Shown: positions 20,535 to 30,542 of the stretch, one piece after another | Numbering within the stretch: position 1 is the stretch's first letter | How the letters are laid out: each line of letters begins with the position of its first letter | DNA from: Ilumatobacter nonamiensis YM16-303 | GTDB taxonomy: Bacteria; Actinomycetota; Acidimicrobiia; Acidimicrobiales; Ilumatobacteraceae | DNA length: 46,871 bases | Direction: 5' to 3' | Assembly: GCF_000350145.1 (NCBI RefSeq) | Contig: NZ_BAOL01000054.1 | Span: 1 to 46,871, forward strand | Translations under genes and position numbers: made by a program | The notes under the pieces: model-generated | What the model saw: the letters and a program-made list of their open reading frames with translations, nothing else | What the model was told of the DNA's origin: nothing | Databases searched by the model: none

Positions 20535-21767
20535 TCAGGCCGGGACGGTGTCGACGACGATCGACCGCTCGCTGGCGATCGGTGGCAGCCGCAACGTGAG
20601 GAGCCAGGTGATCGCCAGCGCGATCGCGGAACCGACGAGGGCGAGCGTGAGCCCTCCCCAGAGATAGAGCACACCCGAGAGCAGGGTTCCCACGAGTCGG
20701 CCGGCCGCGTTGGCGGAGTAGTAGAAGCCGACGTCGAGCGAAACATCATCATCGTCGGCGTACGCCAGGATGAGATAGCTGTGCAGCGATGAGTTGAGGG
20801 CGAACACGACACCGAACACGATCAAGCCCCCGACGATGGCGATCGTGGTTGCGAAGTCGGCGCCGACCGCAGCCGCGATCACCGTGGCGATGACCGCGAG
20901 CACGAGCGACCACACCCGCGCCGCGTGGATCTCGTCGAGGGGTTGATTCCGCCGGCGCAGGAAACGCGGCGCCGCCGTTTGCACGATGCCGTATCCGATC
21001 GTCCACAAGGCGAGGAACGCACCGATCGCCTCGAAGCTCCAGTGGAGTTCGTCATCGAGGAACACCGGCAGCGCGACGACGAACCAGATGTCTCGCGACG
21101 CGAACAGGAAGAAGCGCGCGGTGGCCAGCCGGTTGATCGCGGCCGACTTCGAAAGGATCGACCGGAGCGGCGGCTTCTTCTTCGACCGACCGATGTCCTC
21201 GTCGAGCATGATCGCCACCGCCGCGAGTGCCGCGGCGACGAGCCCCGCCAGCGCCCACAGCGCTGCGTCGTAGCCGATCCAGGAGAGCAGCCAGGCGCCG
21301 ATGAAGAAGCCGAGACCCTTCAACGCGTTCTTCGAACCGGTCAGGATGGCGACGAGTCGGAACAGCGCGCCATCGCCGTCACCAGCGACGAACTTGACGG
21401 CGCTCTTCGAGCTCATCTTCGTGAGGTCCTTCGCGACGCCGGAGAGTGCCTGCGCGCCCATCACGTACGCCACCGAGACCCACTCCACCCAATCGGTCTG
21501 TTGGAGCGTGAGCGCGATCAGCGCGAACACCTGCAGTCCGAGACCGGCGATCAACGTACGGTTCAGGCCCGTCCGCGCTCCGACCCAGCCACCGACCAGG
21601 TTGGTGATGACGCCCATGAACTCATACGCCAGGAACAGGAACGCGAGCGCGACCGGCGAGTAGCCGAGTTCGTGGAAGTAGAGCAGGACCAACATCCGCA
21701 GCGCGCCGTCGGTGATGGTGAATGCCCAGTACCCGGCGGTGACGAGGACGTAGTTGCGGAGTTTCAT
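20535..21767 (-). CDS. arsJ: ArsJ-like organoarsenical efflux MFS transporter
   Basis: 410 aa with 12 predicted helices. The opening MKLRNYVLVTAGYWAFTITDGALRMLVLLYFHELGYSP and the segment GVAKDLTKMSSKSAVKF are typical of the ArsJ branch of the major facilitator superfamily. ArsJ exports 1-arseno-3-phosphoglycerate, the unstable product of arsenate addition by the partner GAPDH, so arsenate leaves the cell. The GAPDH gene ends 16 bp upstream, giving the classical gap-arsJ pair. The ATG at 21767 is used. It is the last gene of the four-gene ars operon. Confidence 0.9.
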   Translation of the reverse strand: MKLRNYVLVTAGYWAFTITDGALRMLVLLYFHELGYSPVALAFLFLAYEFMGVITNLVGGWVGARTGLNRTLIAGLGLQVFALIALTLQQTDWVEWVSVAYVMGAQALSGVAKDLTKMSSKSAVKFVAGDGDGALFRLVAILTGSKNALKGLGFFIGAWLLSWIGYDAALWALAGLVAAALAAVAIMLDEDIGRSKKKPPLRSILSKSAAINRLATARFFLFASRDIWFVVALPVFLDDELHWSFEAIGAFLALWTIGYGIVQTAAPRFLRRRNQPLDEIHAARVWSLVLAVIATVIAAAVGADFATTIAIVGGLIVFGVVFALNSSLHSYLILAYADDDDVSLDVGFYYSANAAGRLVGTLLSGVLYLWGGLTLALVGSAIALAITWLLTLRLPPIASERSIVVDTVPA

Positions 21768-21783
21768 GGCGGTGGATCGTTCG

Positions 21784-22803
21784 TCAGCGGGACGGAAGTG
21801 TGCTGGCGATCTTGGCGGCGAGGTCGGCCATGCGGAACGCGTAGCCGTACTCGTTGTCGTACCAGACGAGCACTTTCACCATCCGGTCGTCGATGACCAT
21901 CGTGGACGGTGCGTCGACGATGCCGGATCGGGTGTCGTTCGTGTAGTCCGCCGACACCAGCGGCCGTTCCTCGTACCCGAGGATGCCCTTCAGCTCGCCT
22001 TCGGCAGCTTCGCGCAGCAGCGCGTTGACCTCGTCGACCGTGACATCGCGCGACACGGTGAACACCGCGTCCGTGAGCGATGCATTCAGCAGCGGAACGC
22101 GCACCGCGGTTCCGTTCAGCTTGCCGGTCAGTTCGGGGTAGATCATCGTGATCGCCGTGGCCGAGCCGGTCGAGGTCGGGATCAACGAGTTAAGCGCCGA
22201 CCGCGCTCGGCGCAGATCCTTGTGGGGCGCGTCGACGATCACCTGGGTGTTCGTCACGTCGTGGATCGTGGTGATCGCTCCACGCTCGATCCCGATGCCT
22301 TCGTGGAGGACCTTCACAACCGGTGCCAGGCAATTCGTGGTGCACGACGCAGCGGTCACGATGTGGTCGGTGGCCGGGTCGTAGAGGTCGTCATTGCACC
22401 CCATCACGACGTTGAGCACCCCGTCGCTCTTGACCGGTGCGGCGACGATCACCTTGCGCACACCGTGCTCGAAGTACGGCTCGAGCGTCTCGGTCGTCCG
22501 GAACGCACCGCTGCACTCCAGCACGACATCGACGCCGTGCTCCGCCCACGGCACGAGTTCGGGCCGCCCCTCCGACGACCAGCTCACGTCGCTTCCGTCG
22601 ATCGTCACCTTGCTGCCGTCGGTCGCGACCGTGCCGCTGTACCGACCGTGGACGGTGTCGAACTCCAGGAGGTGTGCAGCCGTGGCGGCATCTCCGGAGA
22701 GCTCGTTGATGTGCACGAGTTCGAGCTCGGGACGTTCGCGCAGCGCCCGTACGACGAGTCGACCGATCCGCCCGAAACCGTTGATTCCCACTCGCACCGT
22801 CAC
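21784..22803 (-). CDS. ArsJ-associated glyceraldehyde-3-phosphate dehydrogenase
   Basis: 339 aa, full length. The NAD-binding start is [19 protein letters not shown]. The catalytic Cys is C154 in [20 protein letters not shown] and [16 protein letters not shown] are standard GAPDH blocks. In this setting the enzyme uses arsenate in place of phosphate, forming 1-arseno-3-phosphoglycerate for ArsJ. GTG at 22803 is the start; it overlaps the arsC stop (GTGA), so translation is coupled. The organism presumably has a separate glycolytic GAPDH elsewhere. Its operon position, rather than any single residue, argues for the arsenic role. Confidence 0.9.
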
Positions 22804-23456
22804 GACAGCACCCCGAGCGTCGCCATGAGCGCCTCGACGCGGGTGCGAACGTCATCGCGAACTTCTGCGAGTTCGTCCGGATTCAAGCGGCGCGGACTCG
22901 GAATGTCCCAGTCGACGTAGCGCTTGCCTTCGAGGATCGGGCACGCCTCGCCGCAACCCATGGTGACGATCACGTCGGCTCCGCGCATCACCTCGTCGGT
23001 CCAGGGCTTCGGGTACTCGTTCGAGATGTCGATCCCGACCTCCGCCATCGTCTCGACGACCCGGCGGTTGCTGTCCGCTGACGGTGACGACCCTCCGGAG
23101 AACACGTCGACGCGGTCCCCCGCGAGGTGGCGCATCCAGCCCGCCGCCATCTGGGACCGACCGGCGTTGTGGTCGCACAGGAACAGCACGCCGGGTCGCG
23201 CGCCCGCCGAGCTCTCGAGCCTCGCGAGCCCGGTCAGGCGGTCATTCGTCAGTCGTTCGATCAGCACGGGAAGCCACATCGAAATCGTGGCCTCCGACGC
23301 GAGCTTCTGTCGAGAGTCCTCGACGCAACGCTCGATGGTCTCGGAGTTGAAGAGTCCTTCGAACTTGAGTTGCAGACGCTCGACGGCGCCGTTCATCAGC
23401 TCCATTTCCTCCGAGGTCATGGAAACGCCCCTCGGGCGTCGCTCTACCGCGCTCAT
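22800..23456 (-). CDS. arsC: Arsenate reductase, LMW-phosphatase type with N-terminal helical domain
   Basis: 218 aa. Residues about 15-80 form a helical domain ([35 protein letters not shown]) like the three-helix bundle of corynebacterial ArsC proteins. The phosphatase-fold domain has the P-loop [12 protein letters not shown] with C94 and R100. [24 protein letters not shown] follows, containing C168 and C172. Corynebacterial relatives reduce arsenate through a mycothiol adduct and mycoredoxin; C168 and C172 could instead allow a thioredoxin-type relay. The ATG at 23456 has an AAAGGA Shine-Dalgarno. It lies between the ArsR fusion and the GAPDH gene. Confidence 0.88.
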
Positions 23457-23476
23457 GTGGTTGTCCTTTCGCTGGT

Positions 23477-24124
23477 TCACGTGATGTGAGTGGAGATTCG
23501 GGAGTCCAGGTCGGCGAGCACGGCGTCGAACGCTCGCGGATCGTCCGCCTCGACGGGGTCGGGGAGCGACCAGTGCCACCACGACGGGTCGGGGTCGAGT
23601 TCTTCGTAGGCCCGATCGCACACCGTCACGACCTGCACGGTGTGCAAGGGACCTGCGATCAGGCTCGGCGCTGCGTGCGACAGGTCGAGTCCGAGTCGCG
23701 CTCCGGCGGCGACCGCATCGGGATGGACACGATCGGCGGGGTGGGTACCCGCCGACGACGCCGGTGTCCCGATGCGCTCCTTCCAGAGCGCCGAGGCGAG
23801 CTGCGAGCGTGCCGAGTTGTGGGTGCACACGAAGAGCACCGACGAGGGAGCCGAGGCGATCGGCAATCCGAGTGCGTGCAACGGTTGTCGGTCCAGGCGC
23901 ACGTATCGGCGGCGGCGGTCGCCGGAGGACTCGAATCGGACGATCAGTCCGACCTGCTCGAGCACGTCGAGATGGTGGGCCAGGAGATTGCCCGCCAGCC
24001 CCAGTCGGGCGGCGAGCTCACTCGGTGCCCGATCGCTCAGGCTCAACTCATCCACGATCGCCAGTCGGCTCGCGTCGGAGAGTGCCGCGTGCACCCGCGA
24101 GCGTTTCGCTCGGTCCGCTTCCAT
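23477..24124 (-). CDS. arsR: ArsR-family regulator fused to LMW-phosphatase (ArsC-like) domain
   Basis: 215 aa in two domains. Residues 1-85 are an ArsR winged helix: VHAALSDASRLAIVDELSLSDRAPSELAARLGLAGNLLAHHLDVLEQVGLI. Residues about 93-215 are a low-molecular-weight phosphatase/arsenate-reductase domain with the P-loop VLFVCTHNSARSQ (C100, R106) and a further Cys in VVTVCDRAYEE (C169). The HTH part has no cysteine, so arsenite sensing by the usual ELCVCDL site is absent; the fused domain may act as sensor or enzyme. The start at 24124 is chosen, with ATG 24133 as alternative. It is first in the ars operon, with a palindromic operator just upstream. Confidence 0.85.
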   Translation of the reverse strand: MEADRAKRSRVHAALSDASRLAIVDELSLSDRAPSELAARLGLAGNLLAHHLDVLEQVGLIVRFESSGDRRRRYVRLDRQPLHALGLPIASAPSSVLFVCTHNSARSQLASALWKERIGTPASSAGTHPADRVHPDAVAAGARLGLDLSHAAPSLIAGPLHTVQVVTVCDRAYEELDPDPSWWHWSLPDPVEADDPRAFDAVLADLDSRISTHIT

Positions 24125-24140
24125 GACGGCCATTATCCAC

Positions 24141-26524: not shown

Positions 26525-27166
26525 TCAGGCGCGCTGTGGCAGGCGCTCGCGGACGTTGTCCCGAATCGCTCCCCAGTCGGGCCGGCCGGGAGAGCCGGCG
26601 ATCATCCACGCGAGAGCCAGCCCTGCGAGTTCGGTCAGGTGACTCATCTCCGACACCGCACTGCGACCGTTCTCCGCGATGTCGAAGCCGGCGCTGAGCA
26701 GCATCGTCAAGAGCAGCGCGCCGGCGAACGGGAGCATGCCGTAGGCGCGATGGGGCCGCCACGCGACGAATGCGAGCCCGACCCCGAGCGCCACGCCGAA
26801 TGCACCCAGGTGCCGGGCGAGGTGCACCTCGGCCCCGCTCATCTGCCCTGCCACCAACGCCGCTGCGTTCTGCGCGATCAGCAGGAACGCAACCCATGCC
26901 AGCGCCGGTCGACGCCACCCGTTGCGACCGAGCACGGCGGGACGAGCACGGCTCAGGATCGCCGGGCGCAGATCGGGAACCGCAACCGCCGGGCGGAGCC
27001 GAACCCGCCGGTCGAGCTGCAGGAACTGCGCCGACAACTGCTCGCACGCCGGGCATCCCGCCAGGTGGTGATCGAGTTGCTTCATCTCGGGAGCGGTCGC
27101 CTCTCCATCCATTCGCGCGGAGAGGATCTCGTGTGCGGTGTCGCACGACAGCTGTTCGGCGTCCAT
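26525..27166 (-). CDS. Zinc-finger anti-sigma factor (zf-HC2/ZAS), membrane-bound
   Basis: 213 aa. The N-terminal anti-sigma domain has CDTAHEILSARMDGEATAPEM followed by HHLAGCPAC, that is H34-x3-C38-x2-C41 of the ZAS fold. A linker leads to hydrophobic segments from about residue 85 (ALAWVAFLLIAQNAAALVAG, FGVALGVGLAFVAW, FAGALLLTMLLSAG, LAGLALAWMIAG), giving four membrane helices. It would hold the divergently encoded ECF sigma factor inactive until a signal, probably related to copper or the cell envelope. Unusually, it is encoded opposite to its sigma factor rather than after it. Confidence 0.85.
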   Translation of the reverse strand: MDAEQLSCDTAHEILSARMDGEATAPEMKQLDHHLAGCPACEQLSAQFLQLDRRVRLRPAVAVPDLRPAILSRARPAVLGRNGWRRPALAWVAFLLIAQNAAALVAGQMSGAEVHLARHLGAFGVALGVGLAFVAWRPHRAYGMLPFAGALLLTMLLSAGFDIAENGRSAVSEMSHLTELAGLALAWMIAGSPGRPDWGAIRDNVRERLPQRA

Positions 27167-27168
27167 GT

Positions 27169-27200
27169 GAACCAGGTCGCTCCGAGGACCGTTCTGGTTC
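27169..27200. promoter_or_regulatory. Candidate symmetric ECF promoter between sigma and anti-sigma genes
   Basis: GAACCAG (27169-27175) and its complement CTGGTTC (27194-27200) place the same GAACC box, like an ECF -35 element, on both strands of the 55-bp divergent gap. On the plus strand CGTTC lies about 16 bp after it, a plausible -10. This suggests autoregulation of both genes, but is inferred only. Confidence 0.4.
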
Positions 27201-27221
27201 CCGAGTCGCCAGACTGGAGGT

Positions 27222-27785
27222 GTGGACCATCTGACGCGACTCCTCCTTGCTGCACAGCAGGGTGATGCCGCGGCGCTCGACCGTTTCGTGGCCGAGACGC
27301 AAGCCGAGGTCTGGAACGTCTGCCGCTACCTCGGCGACGCGCGCGACGCGGACGACCTGGCCCAGGAGGTCTACGAGCGGGCGATCAAGTCGCTCCCCCG
27401 CTATCGCGCCGAGGGCGCCGCCCGCGGCTGGTTGCTCACCATCGCTCGCCGCGTGTGCGCCGACCACGTTCGACGGGCCCAGCGTCGTCGGCGCAAGGAG
27501 CAGGCGGCGGTCGACGAGGCCCACGTCCAGGCCGACTTCCTGCCGGACACCACGCTCGGCGTCGATCTCGACGTGCTCCTCGGGCAACTCGACGACGATC
27601 GGCGCACCGCGTTCGTGCTCACTCAGGTGCTCGGCATGTACTACGACGAGGCCGCCGAGGTGATCGGGTGTCCGGTGGGCACCGTGCGTTCCCGGGTCTC
27701 GCGGGCTCGACTCGATCTCGCCGCGATGGCCACGGCGACCGACGACGGCGAGGCGGACGATCTGCGGCCCACGGGAACGAAGTGA
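27222..27785 (+). CDS. ECF sigma factor (sigma-70 family)
   Basis: 187 aa with sigma regions 2 and 4 only. Region 2 is VCRYLGDARDADDLAQEVYERAIKSLPRYRAEG and ARGWLLTIARRVCADHVRR. Region 4 is DDRRTAFVLTQVLGMYYDEAAEVIGCPVGTVRSRVSRARLDL. The GTG at 27222 directly follows GGAGG with one base between, so spacing is tight and a start slightly downstream is possible. It heads a five-gene copper-related operon; the SCO1 gene follows with a 4-bp overlap if its GTG start is used. Its partner anti-sigma factor is divergent. Confidence 0.88.
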   Translation: MDHLTRLLLAAQQGDAAALDRFVAETQAEVWNVCRYLGDARDADDLAQEVYERAIKSLPRYRAEGAARGWLLTIARRVCADHVRRAQRRRRKEQAAVDEAHVQADFLPDTTLGVDLDVLLGQLDDDRRTAFVLTQVLGMYYDEAAEVIGCPVGTVRSRVSRARLDLAAMATATDDGEADDLRPTGTK

Positions 27786-27808
27786 ACGTTGCCGACGACC
27801 TGCAGGGC

Positions 27809-28471
27809 ATGAACTCCCCAAGGCCCGAGCGACCGCGTCACCGTCGACTCCACCGGATCGGCGGCGTGGCGCTGGCTGCCGCCCTCGTCGCGTCCGCAGC
27901 GTGCGGCAGTGACGACGAGAGCGGCGGCGAAGCGTCCGACCCCGCGCTGTCCGGCGTCGTCCGCGATCCGGCACCCGAGGTCGACCTCGTCACGCTGCCG
28001 TCCCTCAGCGACCCGGGCGAGGAGGTCGAGTTCCGCGCCGACGAGGGCGAACTCCAGGTGGTCTACTTCGGGTTCACCAACTGCCCGGACGTGTGCCCGA
28101 CCACGATGGTCGATCTGGCCGTTGCGCTCCGGATGCTCGACGACGATCAGGCGGACGATGTCGAGGTCGTGATGGCGACCGTCGATCCCGACCGAGATCT
28201 GGAGATTCTCGACGGGTACGTGACGTCGTTCGTTCCCGATGCGATCGCCGTGGGAACTCCCGACACCGAGTTGATCGCCGCGGCGGGTGAGCCGTTCGGC
28301 GCGAGTTGGGAAGTCCGCGAAACCGACGACGGCACGATCGAAGTCGATCATTCCCCGTTCCTCTACGCCGTGGACGACGAGGGCAAGCTGGTGCTGTCCT
28401 GGCAGTTCGGGGCCTCGTCGGAGGACATGGCCGCCGACATCAGCACGCTGCTCGAACGGGCCCAGGCCTGA
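27809..28471 (+). CDS. SCO1/SenC-family copper chaperone lipoprotein
   Basis: 220 aa from ATG 27809. A GTG at 27782 would overlap the sigma stop (GTGA) and add nine residues. The signal peptide is RHRRLHRIGGVALAAALVASAAC, with the lipobox Cys at 32. The thioredoxin-fold motif FGFTNCPDVCPTTM gives C92 and C96, and the third copper ligand is H181 in VDHSPFLYAV. These are the canonical SCO1 ligands, so copper delivery to the CuA site of cytochrome oxidase, or thiol redox work, is expected outside the membrane. It is followed by a cupredoxin 9 bp later. Confidence 0.9.
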   Translation: MNSPRPERPRHRRLHRIGGVALAAALVASAACGSDDESGGEASDPALSGVVRDPAPEVDLVTLPSLSDPGEEVEFRADEGELQVVYFGFTNCPDVCPTTMVDLAVALRMLDDDQADDVEVVMATVDPDRDLEILDGYVTSFVPDAIAVGTPDTELIAAAGEPFGASWEVRETDDGTIEVDHSPFLYAVDDEGKLVLSWQFGASSEDMAADISTLLERAQA

Positions 28472-28480
28472 GGCCACACC

Positions 28481-28885
28481 ATGAAGGTCTCGGCATCCTC
28501 TCGCACCGTCCGCAGGACGTTCGTCGCAGTCGGGCTCGCATTGGCGATGTCGGTGGGTGCCGCGTGTTCCGGCGACGCCGACTCGGGTCCCGGGTTCGGA
28601 ACCGAGGACGGAACGGCCGCGGCCACGTACGAGTACACGATTCCCGCAGGCGCCGGTGAAGCGCTCGACGCGGGCACGCCGCTCGAGATCCTCCCGGGCA
28701 CGCTCGAGGCGTCCGTCGGCGAGACGATCGAGATCGTCAACCTCGACGATCGGGGCCACAACGTCGGACCGTGGTTCGTCGGCGCCGACGAGACGTTGCG
28801 CCAGGAGTTCACCTCGCCCGGTCGGTTCGAGGGCGTGTGCACCGTTCATCCGAGCGGTGAGTTGGTCCTCGTCGTCGACGCATGA
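28481..28885 (+). CDS. Cupredoxin-domain lipoprotein
   Basis: 134 aa. The signal peptide ends at the lipobox GAAC (Cys29). The cupredoxin fold spans about residues 65-134: GTLEASVGETIEIVNLDDRGHNVG, then EFTSPGRFEGVCTVHPSGELVLVV. Copper ligands visible are H93, C120 and H123. The usual axial Met a few residues after the His (HPxM-type) is not present; the segment reads HPSGEL. Electron transfer or copper storage beside the SCO1 and PCu(A)C chaperones is likely. The stop overlaps the next start (ATGA). Confidence 0.85.
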   Translation: MKVSASSRTVRRTFVAVGLALAMSVGAACSGDADSGPGFGTEDGTAAATYEYTIPAGAGEALDAGTPLEILPGTLEASVGETIEIVNLDDRGHNVGPWFVGADETLRQEFTSPGRFEGVCTVHPSGELVLVVDA

Positions 28886-29916
28886 CGACGCACACCCCGC
28901 GCAGGCTCGGCCACCGGACACCGGTCGTCGCGGCGATCGTCGCGATCGTCCTGCTCCTCGGTGGCGGCACCGCACACGCCGATCCGGCGGGCCCCACCGA
29001 CTACCGATCGGAGATCCTGTCGATCGAACCTGCGACCCCGTCGATCGCGATCGATGTGATCGGTGGCGACTCGTTCGTCAGGTTGCGCGCCGAGTCCGGT
29101 ACCGAGGTGATGGTGCTCGGATACTTCGGCGAGCCGTACCTGTGGTTTCTTCCCGACGGTGACGTGCGCGAGAACCAGAACTCGCCCACCACCTACCAGA
29201 ACGAGGAGCGATACGGCGCCGACGCTCCCGACTTCGCCAGCGCGGATGCCGAACCGGACTGGGAGACGGTGGCGTCGGCGGGCACATACGCCTGGCACGA
29301 CCATCGCGCCCACTGGATGCAACCGATCCGTCCCGCCGGCCAGGAACCGGGCGACCAGATCCTCGAGCAGGTGATCCCGATCGAGGTCGACGGTGATCCG
29401 GTCTCGGTGACCGTCATCTCCACGTGGGAACCCGAACCGTCGATGCTCCCGGCGATCGCGGGCGGAATCGTCGGAGCGATCGTCGTCGGGGCGGCTGCCT
29501 GGTGGTCCCGACGGAACGCGGCGTGGGCGGTCGCACTGACTCCGATCGCCCTGGCCGCGACATTGGCGGGTTGGTGGCAGTACTCGTCGCTCCCGTCCGA
29601 AACCGACCCACGGCTGGTCTGGCCACTCCTCCCGGCGCTCGCGCTCGCCGCCTGCGTCGCTGCGGTACCGCTCAGGACCCGGTCACCGTTCGCCGCCCTG
29701 GCCGCCGGGCTCGTCGCGTCGAGCGAACTGATCGTGTGGGCGTTCATCAAACGCGACGGACTCAGTGCGGCGATCGTGCCGACCGATGCCCCGCAATGGT
29801 TCGAGCGATTCGTGCTCGTCGCGGCGTTCGTTGCCGGCGTCGGTGGTGTGGCGATCGCGCTCTACCGACTTTTTCTGGCCACGCCGGGAACCACGGCCGC
29901 CGCCGCGGCGACCTGA
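28882..29916 (+). CDS. Uncharacterised exported/membrane protein with WHDHRxHWM motif, copper locus
   Basis: 344 aa. An N-terminal signal segment (VVAAIVAIVLLLGGGTAHA) leads to a periplasmic domain of about 170 residues containing TDYRSEILSIEP, VMVLGYFGEPYLWFLPDG, and AWHDHRAHWMQPI near residues 135-147. At least five hydrophobic segments follow from about residue 190 (MLPAIAGGIVGAIVVGAAAWW, VALTPIALAATLAGWW, LLPALALAACVAAVPL, FAALAAGLVASSELIVWAF, FVLVAAFVAGVGGVAIALYRLF). The clustered His, Trp and Met could bind copper. Similar proteins occur near copper genes in actinobacteria, but no function is established. Both flanking genes are copper proteins, and it is coupled to the upstream one by a 4-bp overlap. 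Confidence 0.75.
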   Translation: MTTHTPRRLGHRTPVVAAIVAIVLLLGGGTAHADPAGPTDYRSEILSIEPATPSIAIDVIGGDSFVRLRAESGTEVMVLGYFGEPYLWFLPDGDVRENQNSPTTYQNEERYGADAPDFASADAEPDWETVASAGTYAWHDHRAHWMQPIRPAGQEPGDQILEQVIPIEVDGDPVSVTVISTWEPEPSMLPAIAGGIVGAIVVGAAAWWSRRNAAWAVALTPIALAATLAGWWQYSSLPSETDPRLVWPLLPALALAACVAAVPLRTRSPFAALAAGLVASSELIVWAFIKRDGLSAAIVPTDAPQWFERFVLVAAFVAGVGGVAIALYRLFLATPGTTAAAAAT

Positions 29917-29921
29917 CCGTC

Positions 29922-30542
29922 GTGAACCCACGCAACTCGAACCTTCCCCATCGCGCCCTGGCGCTCGTCGCCGTCGCCACGCTCGGTTTCGCCGCCTGCG
30001 GCTCCGACGACGCGAGCAGCGACGACACCGAGCAGTCCACCGACGCCGTCGAGGCCGACGGTGTCACCATGACCGACGCCTGGTCCCGCCAGCCCGCCGA
30101 GGGCCAGACCACGGCAGCGGTCTACGGGGTCCTCACCAACGACACCGACGAGACGGTCACCGCGATCTCGGCGACCAGTTCGGCCACCGACAACGTCGAA
30201 CTCCACGAGGTGTTGATGGGCGACGACGACCAGATGACGATGCAGGAGAAGGAAGGCGGCTACGAGATCGCGGCGGGCGAGTCGCTCACCTTCGAGCCCG
30301 GTGGCGCCCACATCATGCTGCTCGACATCGACGCCGCGTCGTACCCCGATCCCGTCGACATCACGCTGACGTTCGACAACGACACCTCCGTCGAATTCAC
30401 CGCGGAAGTTCGCGCCATCGACGGCGAGGACATGGACGACATGGACCACGACGGGATGGACGACACGGACCACTCGGAGATGGACGACGACGAGATGGAC
30501 GACATGGACGACATGGACGAGGCTCCGACGACCGACGGCTGA
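29922..30542 (+). CDS. PCu(A)C copper chaperone lipoprotein with Met/His/Asp-rich tail
   Basis: 206 aa from GTG 29922, 5 bp after the preceding stop. A lipobox Cys is at 26 (FAAC). The PCu(A)C domain spans about residues 48-165. Its Cu(I) site is the H-x3-M...H-x-M pattern: H95 and M99 in ELHEVLM, then H130 and M132 in GGAHIML. These proteins hand Cu(I) to SCO1 or cytochrome oxidase outside the membrane. Residues 169-200 form an unusual tail with seven Met, two His and many Asp (DDMDHDGM repeats), which could be a second copper-binding region. It is the last gene of the operon and is followed by a strong hairpin. Confidence 0.9.
   Translation: MNPRNSNLPHRALALVAVATLGFAACGSDDASSDDTEQSTDAVEADGVTMTDAWSRQPAEGQTTAAVYGVLTNDTDETVTAISATSSATDNVELHEVLMGDDDQMTMQEKEGGYEIAAGESLTFEPGGAHIMLLDIDAASYPDPVDITLTFDNDTSVEFTAEVRAIDGEDMDDMDHDGMDDTDHSEMDDDEMDDMDDMDEAPTTDG

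What the first reader, a model, noticed from the sequence alone, without database searches (positions are those of the whole stretch)
28882..29916. Unknown membrane protein with a WHDHRxHWM motif inside a copper operon
Between a cupredoxin and a PCu(A)C chaperone lies a protein with a signal segment, an extracytoplasmic domain containing AWHDHRAHWM, and at least five membrane helices. The His/Trp/Met cluster is a plausible copper site. The topology, a soluble domain ahead of a helical bundle, recalls copper importers and exporters such as CopCD/YcnJ, without matching them by eye. This is the best candidate in the window for an undescribed copper-handling protein.
Basis: partly seen in the sequence, partly recalled or inferred. 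Interest (0 to 1): 0.6.

Follow-up and report, generated by a model that had tools for sequence, protein, structure and literature searches.

The report
Undescribed copper-linked membrane protein family
The gene encodes a member of an unnamed actinobacterial protein family whose outward-facing domain carries a conserved His/Met loop, and it sits inside a small copper-supply regulon, so it is probably a copper carrier that helps feed copper to respiratory or import machinery.

Summary
The ORF, signal segment, AWHDHRAHWM motif and five membrane helices are real. No Pfam or NCBIfam model fits. Homologues occur in at least 53 of 396 genomes sampled across the phylum. H139, H141, H144 and M146 are all kept in 123 of 146 relatives. 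Copper or cytochrome-oxidase genes (SCO1, cupredoxin, PCuAC, CopC/CopD, DUF1775, COX) lie within 5 kb in 95 of 125 distinct loci.

New here: an ECF-type promoter, GGGAAC-N16-RCGAC. The window has three copies, each 8 nt before a start codon; one, with a mismatch, heads SCO1–cupredoxin–this gene. Across 127 distinct loci only the 16-nt spacer stands out: 73 sites, 61 ahead of copper operons.

The helix bundle has no conserved His/Met/Cys and shrinks to one helix in some relatives, so a transporter is unlikely. Best reading: a membrane-anchored extracytoplasmic copper chaperone. Copper binding is not shown. Some relatives with a broken motif stay in copper operons, and the statistical link between motif and copper context cannot be separated from shared ancestry.

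The parts
28882..29916 (+). Focal gene, 344 aa, stop included: signal segment, beta-sandwich domain with WHDHRxHWM, five-helix membrane part
28882..28980 (+). Signal segment, residues 1-33; AxA cleavage expected before residue 34 (Asp here; His in 85 of 146 relatives)
   Evidence: cleavage site read from the AxA pattern, not predicted by a program
28981..29445 (+). Extracytoplasmic beta-sandwich domain, residues 34-188
   Evidence: modelled alone from residue 33: pLDDT 95.6, pTM 0.89
29293..29319 (+). WHDHRAHWM motif, residues 138-146; candidate copper loop H139, H141, H144, M146
29446..29877 (+). Five-helix membrane part, residues 189-332; no conserved His, Met or Cys
27773..27800 (+). ECF-type promoter (one mismatch to the strict pattern), 8 nt before the SCO1 ATG at 27809; heads SCO1-cupredoxin-focal gene
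27175..27202 (-). ECF-type promoter, 8 nt before the anti-sigma ATG at 27166
29886..29913 (+). ECF-type promoter inside the 3' end of the focal gene, 8 nt before the PCuAC GTG at 29922
26525..27166 (-). Anti-sigma factor: zf-HC2 zinc finger plus hydrophobic C-terminal half with invariant His
27222..27785 (+). ECF sigma factor; nearest NCBIfam models PRK12535 and SigC, both below cut-off
27809..28471 (+). SCO1-type lipoprotein with CPDVC; start placed at 27809 because of the promoter
28481..28885 (+). Cupredoxin-like lipoprotein with H...C...H; its stop overlaps the focal ATG
29922..30542 (+). PCuAC copper chaperone

Best explanation
The protein is a membrane-anchored extracytoplasmic copper-binding protein. 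After export its beta-sandwich domain faces outward. Copper would be held by the loop H139-D-H141-R-x-H144-W-M146, in many relatives perhaps helped by a mature N-terminal histidine, and handed to or taken from its operon partners (cupredoxin, SCO1 and PCuAC here; CopC, CopD and DUF1775/YcnI elsewhere), so as to supply copper to the cytochrome oxidase or to copper import. The helix bundle is an anchor or docking surface, not a pore. The gene is transcribed with SCO1 and the cupredoxin from a promoter of the adjacent ECF sigma factor. Shown by computation: family, motif conservation, copper neighbourhood, recurring promoter. Inferred: copper binding, direction of transfer, partners, the sigma factor's use of that promoter, and the signal that switches it on.
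For: Motif: H139/H141/H144/M146 all present in 100 of 111 domains and in 123 of 146 in a wider set that adds the order-search loci; no other His or Met column in the domain is conserved except residue 34, His in 45 of 83. Context: copper/COX genes within 5 kb in 57 of 70 and 41 of 60 loci, 95 of 125 after removing five places present in both sets. Pfam on the two upstream genes: CopD 17, DUF1775 8, COX1 6, SCO1 6, UbiA 4, CopC 3 of 112; on the two downstream genes PCuAC 5 of 104. CopD background: 88 matches in 53 genomes of about 199 Mb (summed by hand), so about 0.6% of loci would have one within reach by chance, against a CopC/CopD label at 27 of 60. Promoter, 127 distinct loci: 73 sites at spacer 16, against 1-14 at each other spacer from 10 to 22; 61 ahead of copper operons; 24 loci have it ahead of an operon that includes the focal gene; 22 sites lie 7-11 nt before a called start. 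Twenty permuted patterns gave 0-15 sites and at most 2 ahead of copper operons. An Iamia plasmid carries the gene in a stretch with cupredoxin, CopD, DUF1775, SCO, PCuAC and a COX assembly gene.
Against: No metal binding was or could be measured. W138, D140, R142 and N98 are at least as conserved as the histidines, so the motif could be structural. Five sequences with a degenerate motif remain in CopC/CopD/DUF1775 loci (L146, L149, L162, L193, L195). Motif-intact sequences are more often in copper context (98 of 123 against 7 of 23, p 7e-6), but on a tree the motif changes only 8 times and the three supported independent pairs cannot test it. 30 of 125 distinct loci show no labelled copper/COX gene, some of them cut by contig ends. 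The commonest Pfam families among downstream genes are not copper-related (PASTA 9, transpeptidase 6 of 104). ZnuA-like genes lie within 5 kb at 8 of 125 distinct loci, so zinc is not excluded. Promoter spacer 13 also gave 14 sites, 6 ahead of copper operons. Ligand geometry was not inspected: no coordinates were available to me.
Confidence: 0.6

Rival explanations
1. A copper transporter: the soluble domain captures copper and the helix bundle moves it across the membrane, as proposed for CopC-CopD/YcnJ.
For: Domain plus helical bundle; frequent neighbour of CopC/CopD (54 of 125 distinct loci).
Against: No conserved His, Met or Cys in the bundle; no CopD match; relatives with a single helix persist in copper/COX loci; a CopD is already present in 48 of 53 carrier genomes.
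Confidence: 0.1
2. A copper (or zinc) sensor or regulator that tunes the membrane anti-sigma factor, with metal binding to the WHDHR loop passed on through the helices.
For: A sigma gene of the same group within 5 kb at 46 of 125 distinct loci; operon under the same promoter.
Against: 79 of 125 distinct loci have no such sigma gene within 5 kb; linkage to chaperones is commoner; the anti-sigma factor has invariant histidines of its own.
Confidence: 0.12
3. An assembly factor for cytochrome oxidase that binds protein partners, not metal; the motif is structural.
For: COX2-COX1-CtaB upstream in four loci (L178, L185, L187, L188); invariant R142 and N98; degenerate motifs tolerated in some copper loci.
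Against: In 8 of the 11 exceptions among 111 domains two or more of H139, H141, H144, M146 are lost, while R142 is kept in all 111; CopC/CopD or DUF1775 contexts are commoner than COX contexts.
Confidence: 0.12
4. A copper enzyme (for example an oxidase or reductase acting on extracytoplasmic copper) using a His3Met or His-brace site.
For: His-rich site with near-invariant Trp and invariant Arg; an LPMO is among the very weak fold rows (E 0.45).
Against: No solved structure matches with E <= 0.001, best Z 4.8; no substrate clue in the neighbourhoods.
Confidence: 0.06

Closest known systems
YcnI / DUF1775 (PF07987) of Bacillus subtilis
   Same: Extracytoplasmic copper-linked domain with C-terminal membrane anchor, encoded with CopC/CopD; mature N-terminal His expected in many relatives of the focal protein. 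YcnI features from passages of PMC8424229 and the abstract of PMC12154828.
   Different: No DUF1775 match; a different motif (WHDHRxHWM); the focal protein has Asp, not His, at the expected mature N-terminus; a separate DUF1775 gene lies within 5 kb in 11 of 70 and 16 of 60 loci.
CopC / CopD / YcnJ
   Same: Soluble copper domain and membrane helices; often the same loci.
   Different: No CopC or CopD match; no conserved metal-type residue in the helices.
Ang-2 'anglerases' of Actinomycetota (PMC12537917: passages; section 8 part 1)
   Same: N-terminal-His domain ahead of membrane helices, Actinomycetota, Cu(II) binding reported for Ang-2.
   Different: Ang-2 carries a HupE/UreJ-2 (PF13795) membrane part; 0 of 83 members here match it. 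The paper names unknown proteins, metallophosphatases and DUF916 as common Ang-2 neighbours, not copper genes.
PCuAC and SCO1 chaperones
   Same: Same cluster and presumed pathway (copper to cytochrome oxidase).
   Different: Separate genes beside it; no match of the focal protein to either model.
Mycobacterium tuberculosis SigC copper response (PMC7924339: start of abstract; passages)
   Same: The adjacent sigma factor matches the SigC model at 146 bits.
   Different: Below that model's cut-off of 219; the paper calls sigC monocistronic with no known anti-sigma factor, whereas here one is divergent and adjacent. A search of that paper for the promoter letters found none, so the promoters were not compared.

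Membership tests
Curated families (Pfam, NCBIfam) | Match above curated cut-off | tested here: not met
   P0001: 0 families at E<=10; of 83 members, at E<=0.01, three Pfam and two NCBIfam models each hit one member weakly
Histidine-brace copper proteins (CopC, YcnI, LPMO type) | Mature N-terminal histidine | tested here: not met
   Residue 34 is Asp in the focal protein; His in 85, Asp in 51 of 146 relatives. Cleavage site inferred from the AxA pattern
CopC/CopD | PF04234 / PF05425 match | tested here: not met
YcnI / DUF1775 | PF07987 match | tested here: not met
Ang-2 | C-terminal HupE/UreJ-2 (PF13795) | tested here: not met
   0 of 83 members
Known fold of a solved copper protein | Clear structural match of the soluble domain | tested here: inconclusive
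   No PDB match with E<=0.001; best Z 4.8 to an Ig-like domain
Extracytoplasmic copper chaperone (function) | Binds copper | not testable with these tools
   Needs protein
Extracytoplasmic copper chaperone (function) | Conserved His/Met cluster on an exported domain | tested here: met
Regulon of the adjacent ECF sigma factor | Recurring promoter at a fixed distance before the operon | tested here: met
   that this sigma factor reads the promoter is inferred

The most novel reading that the evidence does not exclude
The WHDHR domain is a previously unrecognised extracytoplasmic copper-binding domain that works as an extra relay in actinobacterial copper supply, interchangeable between SCO1/PCuAC (oxidase assembly) and CopC/CopD/YcnI (import) pathways, and belongs to a compact copper regulon run by an ECF sigma factor through leaderless GGGAAC-N16-RCGAC promoters and a membrane anti-sigma factor whose invariant histidines sense copper directly.
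Probability: 0.35. Interest if true: 0.75.

Novelty: new variant of a known kind. Interest (0 to 1): 0.6.

Why it matters
If right, a conserved piece of copper supply present in at least 53 of 396 sampled genomes of this phylum has gone without a name, and both its site and its control are directly testable. The promoter motif gives a way to find the copper regulon in genomes where the genes are scattered, and the anti-sigma histidines give a concrete candidate for how such cells sense copper.

Tried and rejected
Whole-model fold search is dominated by the helix bundle (Z up to 10.3 to helical proteins of other kinds), so the domain was modelled alone; it still has no clear match. Absence from those lists is not evidence of a new fold.

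A profile of the domain against PDB sequences hits designed beta-trefoils (best E 3e-7) and ribosomal protein eL39 (best E 2.5e-5). The stretches are short (about 25-41 positions), the two sets lie in different parts of the domain and imply contradictory folds; judged chance or composition.

The motif-versus-context association (98 of 123 against 7 of 23; at 90% redundancy 96 of 116 against 8 of 23, and with 3 kb on both sides 67 of 80 against 6 of 14, p 0.002) cannot be told apart from shared ancestry: 8 motif changes, 3 supported independent pairs.

One relative came from a record titled Acidobacteria (L028). A phylum search centred on its genome returned places already seen in the window's phylum sample, so it is treated as Actinomycetota. 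No member outside that phylum was seen, but sought only exact peptide patterns of the focal protein and no other phylum was sampled with the profile. One search scored only five candidates a genome where the first look gave more, so 53 is a lower bound.

In the window's genome four further exact promoter matches have no ORF of 80 aa or more starting within 100 nt after them and are judged chance; the control, the pattern read backwards, gave 2.

Paper searches: WHDHR as text found one unrelated paper (listing only); the listings showed no description of this family. Subscription journals are mostly not held, and supplements were not searched.

Rows dropped: from 85 candidates for alignment A1, three were left out (L041 and L099 over-long, L068 with a shifted frame) and P0001 added, giving 83. 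Of 132 loci used gave a near-complete domain, 110 of them (the window's own apart) not over 90% alike. The two locus sets share five places (L005/L134, L064/L138, L052/L144, L046/L155, L036/L175); counts without the repeats are.

Gene calls in homologous loci come from my own simple caller, so some neighbours are missed or mis-started; labels rest on profiles seeded from a few identified genes.

Full report
What is there. ORF 28882-29916 encodes 344 residues. It has a signal segment, an extracytoplasmic domain and five membrane helices; the AlphaFold2 model is confident (mean pLDDT 91.9, pTM 0.86), and the domain alone more so (95.6, 0.89). The gene order is anti-sigma factor (-), ECF sigma factor, SCO1, cupredoxin, this gene, PCuAC. 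The cupredoxin stop overlaps the focal start, as ATGA. The protein matches no Pfam or NCBIfam model even at E 10; among 83 aligned relatives, five models each hit one member weakly. In a public plasmid record of Iamia the homologue is annotated 'hypothetical protein'.

Distribution. A scan of one genome for each of 84,980 bacterial and archaeal species, by exact peptide patterns of the focal protein, found 70 relatives. Whole-genome searches found it in 25 of 99 genomes of the order and 53 of 396 of the phylum (lower bound, as only five candidates a genome were scored). Named carriers include Frankia, Protofrankia, Longispora and Solirubrobacter. The closest relative in that scan is from an Ilumatobacter-like metagenome bin (64% identity, L002).

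Conservation. In 94 near-full-length homologues W138, D140 and R142 are invariant; H139, H141, H144 and M146 occur in 88, 90, 89 and 83. In 111 domain sequences including the phylum sample, all four are present in 100, and R142 and N98 are invariant. In a wider set of 146, which adds loci of the order search, all four are present in 123. No other His or Met column in the domain is conserved except residue 34, the first residue after the expected AxA cleavage: His in 85, Asp in 51 of 146. His prevails in CopC/CopD/DUF1775 contexts (44 His, 14 Asp) and Asp in SCO1/cupredoxin/PCuAC contexts (5 His, 31 Asp), which is the focal protein's own setting. The histidine brace is therefore possible in many relatives but not in this protein.

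The helices. In 83 sequences the best His, Met and Cys columns of the membrane part hold 24, 7 and 9; the one strongly conserved residue is R309 (81 of 83). Some relatives have only one predicted helix after the domain (L048, L151, L153, L157, L161, L164, L176, L186); six of these eight still have CopC/CopD, SCO1/PCuAC or COX1 labels within 5 kb. Four (L142, L145, L200, L201) carry two domain copies. The domain is thus the constant part, and transport by the bundle is unlikely.

Neighbourhood. Within 5 kb, 57 of 70 loci and 41 of 60 loci of the phylum sample hold at least one of SCO1, cupredoxin, PCuAC, CopC/CopD, DUF1775, COX1, COX2, CtaB, CtaG or DUF305. Five places are in both sets; without repeats the figure is 95 of 125. 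Pfam scans of the two genes on each side in the phylum sample agree upstream (CopD 17, DUF1775 8, COX1 6, SCO1 6, UbiA 4, CopC 3 of 112) and less so downstream, where PASTA (9) and transpeptidase (6) precede PCuAC (5 of 104). CopD matches number 88 in 53 genomes, so by hand arithmetic about 0.6% of such loci would have one by chance, against a CopC/CopD label at 27 of 60. On a tree of 139 domains the copper context changes state 23 times, so the link is not one inherited cluster.

Regulation. Comparing the gap between divergent sigma and anti-sigma genes revealed GGGAAC-N16-RCGAC. In 132 loci there are 75 such sites, 65 ahead of a called start and 63 ahead of copper operons; in the 127 distinct loci 73, 63 and 61, with 24 loci where the operon includes the focal gene and 22 sites 7-11 nt before a called start. 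Other spacers from 10 to 22 give 1-14 sites each; the second best, 13, gives 14 sites, 6 ahead of copper operons. Twenty permuted patterns give 0-15 sites and 0-3 ahead of starts. Mononucleotide shuffles of the loci gave 4-5 sites against 76 for the first pattern used. The window has two exact copies (0.21 expected; 3 of 100 shuffles reached two) and one with a single mismatch. They lie before the anti-sigma gene, PCuAC and SCO1, each 8 nt from the start codon, which suggests leaderless transcripts; the SCO1 one heads SCO1-cupredoxin-focal gene. The two-mismatch search of the window as a whole was no richer than chance (20 against 17.7), so the weight rests on position and on the comparison across loci. 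In the window's genome six exact sites exist, two of them here. Which sigma factor reads the motif is inferred from linkage. The anti-sigma factor has a zinc-finger start and a hydrophobic C-terminal half with His115 in 47 of 47 sequences and His176 in the 45 that reach it.

Interpretation. SCO1 and PCuAC are linked to copper delivery to cytochrome oxidase (passages of PMC3603459), and YcnI and the CopC-CopD protein YcnJ to copper import (abstracts of PMC12154828, and PMC13344008). A protein that recurs with both, has a conserved exported His/Met loop and is anchored in the membrane is most simply a copper carrier between these proteins. Copper binding, partners and direction are not shown.

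Limits. Ligand geometry could not be inspected. Some motif-degenerate members remain in copper operons. The motif-context association is not independent of ancestry. Zinc is not excluded: ZnuA-like genes lie within 5 kb at 8 of 125 distinct loci. No phylum other than Actinomycetota was sampled with the profile.

Noticed in passing
window 26525-27166 (-) and 46 sequences in related loci: The anti-sigma factor beside the copper ECF sigma factor has invariant histidines in its hydrophobic half (H115 in 47 of 47, H176 and D162 in all 45 that reach them): a candidate direct copper or heme sensor.
   Followed up: partly
window 20535-24133 (-): Probable arsenic cluster: an MFS-like protein (by eye), GAPDH, a low-molecular-weight phosphatase/arsenate-reductase type protein, and an HTH_20 regulator fused to another such domain; resembles the ArsJ/GAPDH system as recalled.
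   Followed up: partly
L142, L145, L200, L201: Two copies of the WHDHR domain in one protein, with only a short tail in place of the five-helix bundle.
   Followed up: partly
L043, L051, L064 (= L138), L065, L066, L067, L068, L140, L194, L196, L198: ZnuA-like zinc-uptake genes, mostly with an ABC ATPase gene, near the homologue.
   Followed up: no
L178, L185, L187, L188: Homologue follows COX2-COX1-CtaB.
   Followed up: partly
L190, Iamia plasmid NZ_CP050949.1, 1-15323: Metal island on a plasmid: zf-HC2 protein, cupredoxin, CopD, the homologue, CDF, ArsR, DUF1775, DUF305, cytochrome c, SCO, PCuAC, COX assembly gene.
   Followed up: partly
L028, L066: Record titles (Acidobacteria; Bifidobacterium breve) look wrong for these sequences; L028's genome falls in the window's phylum sample, L066 was not checked beyond its similarity to L064.
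   Followed up: partly
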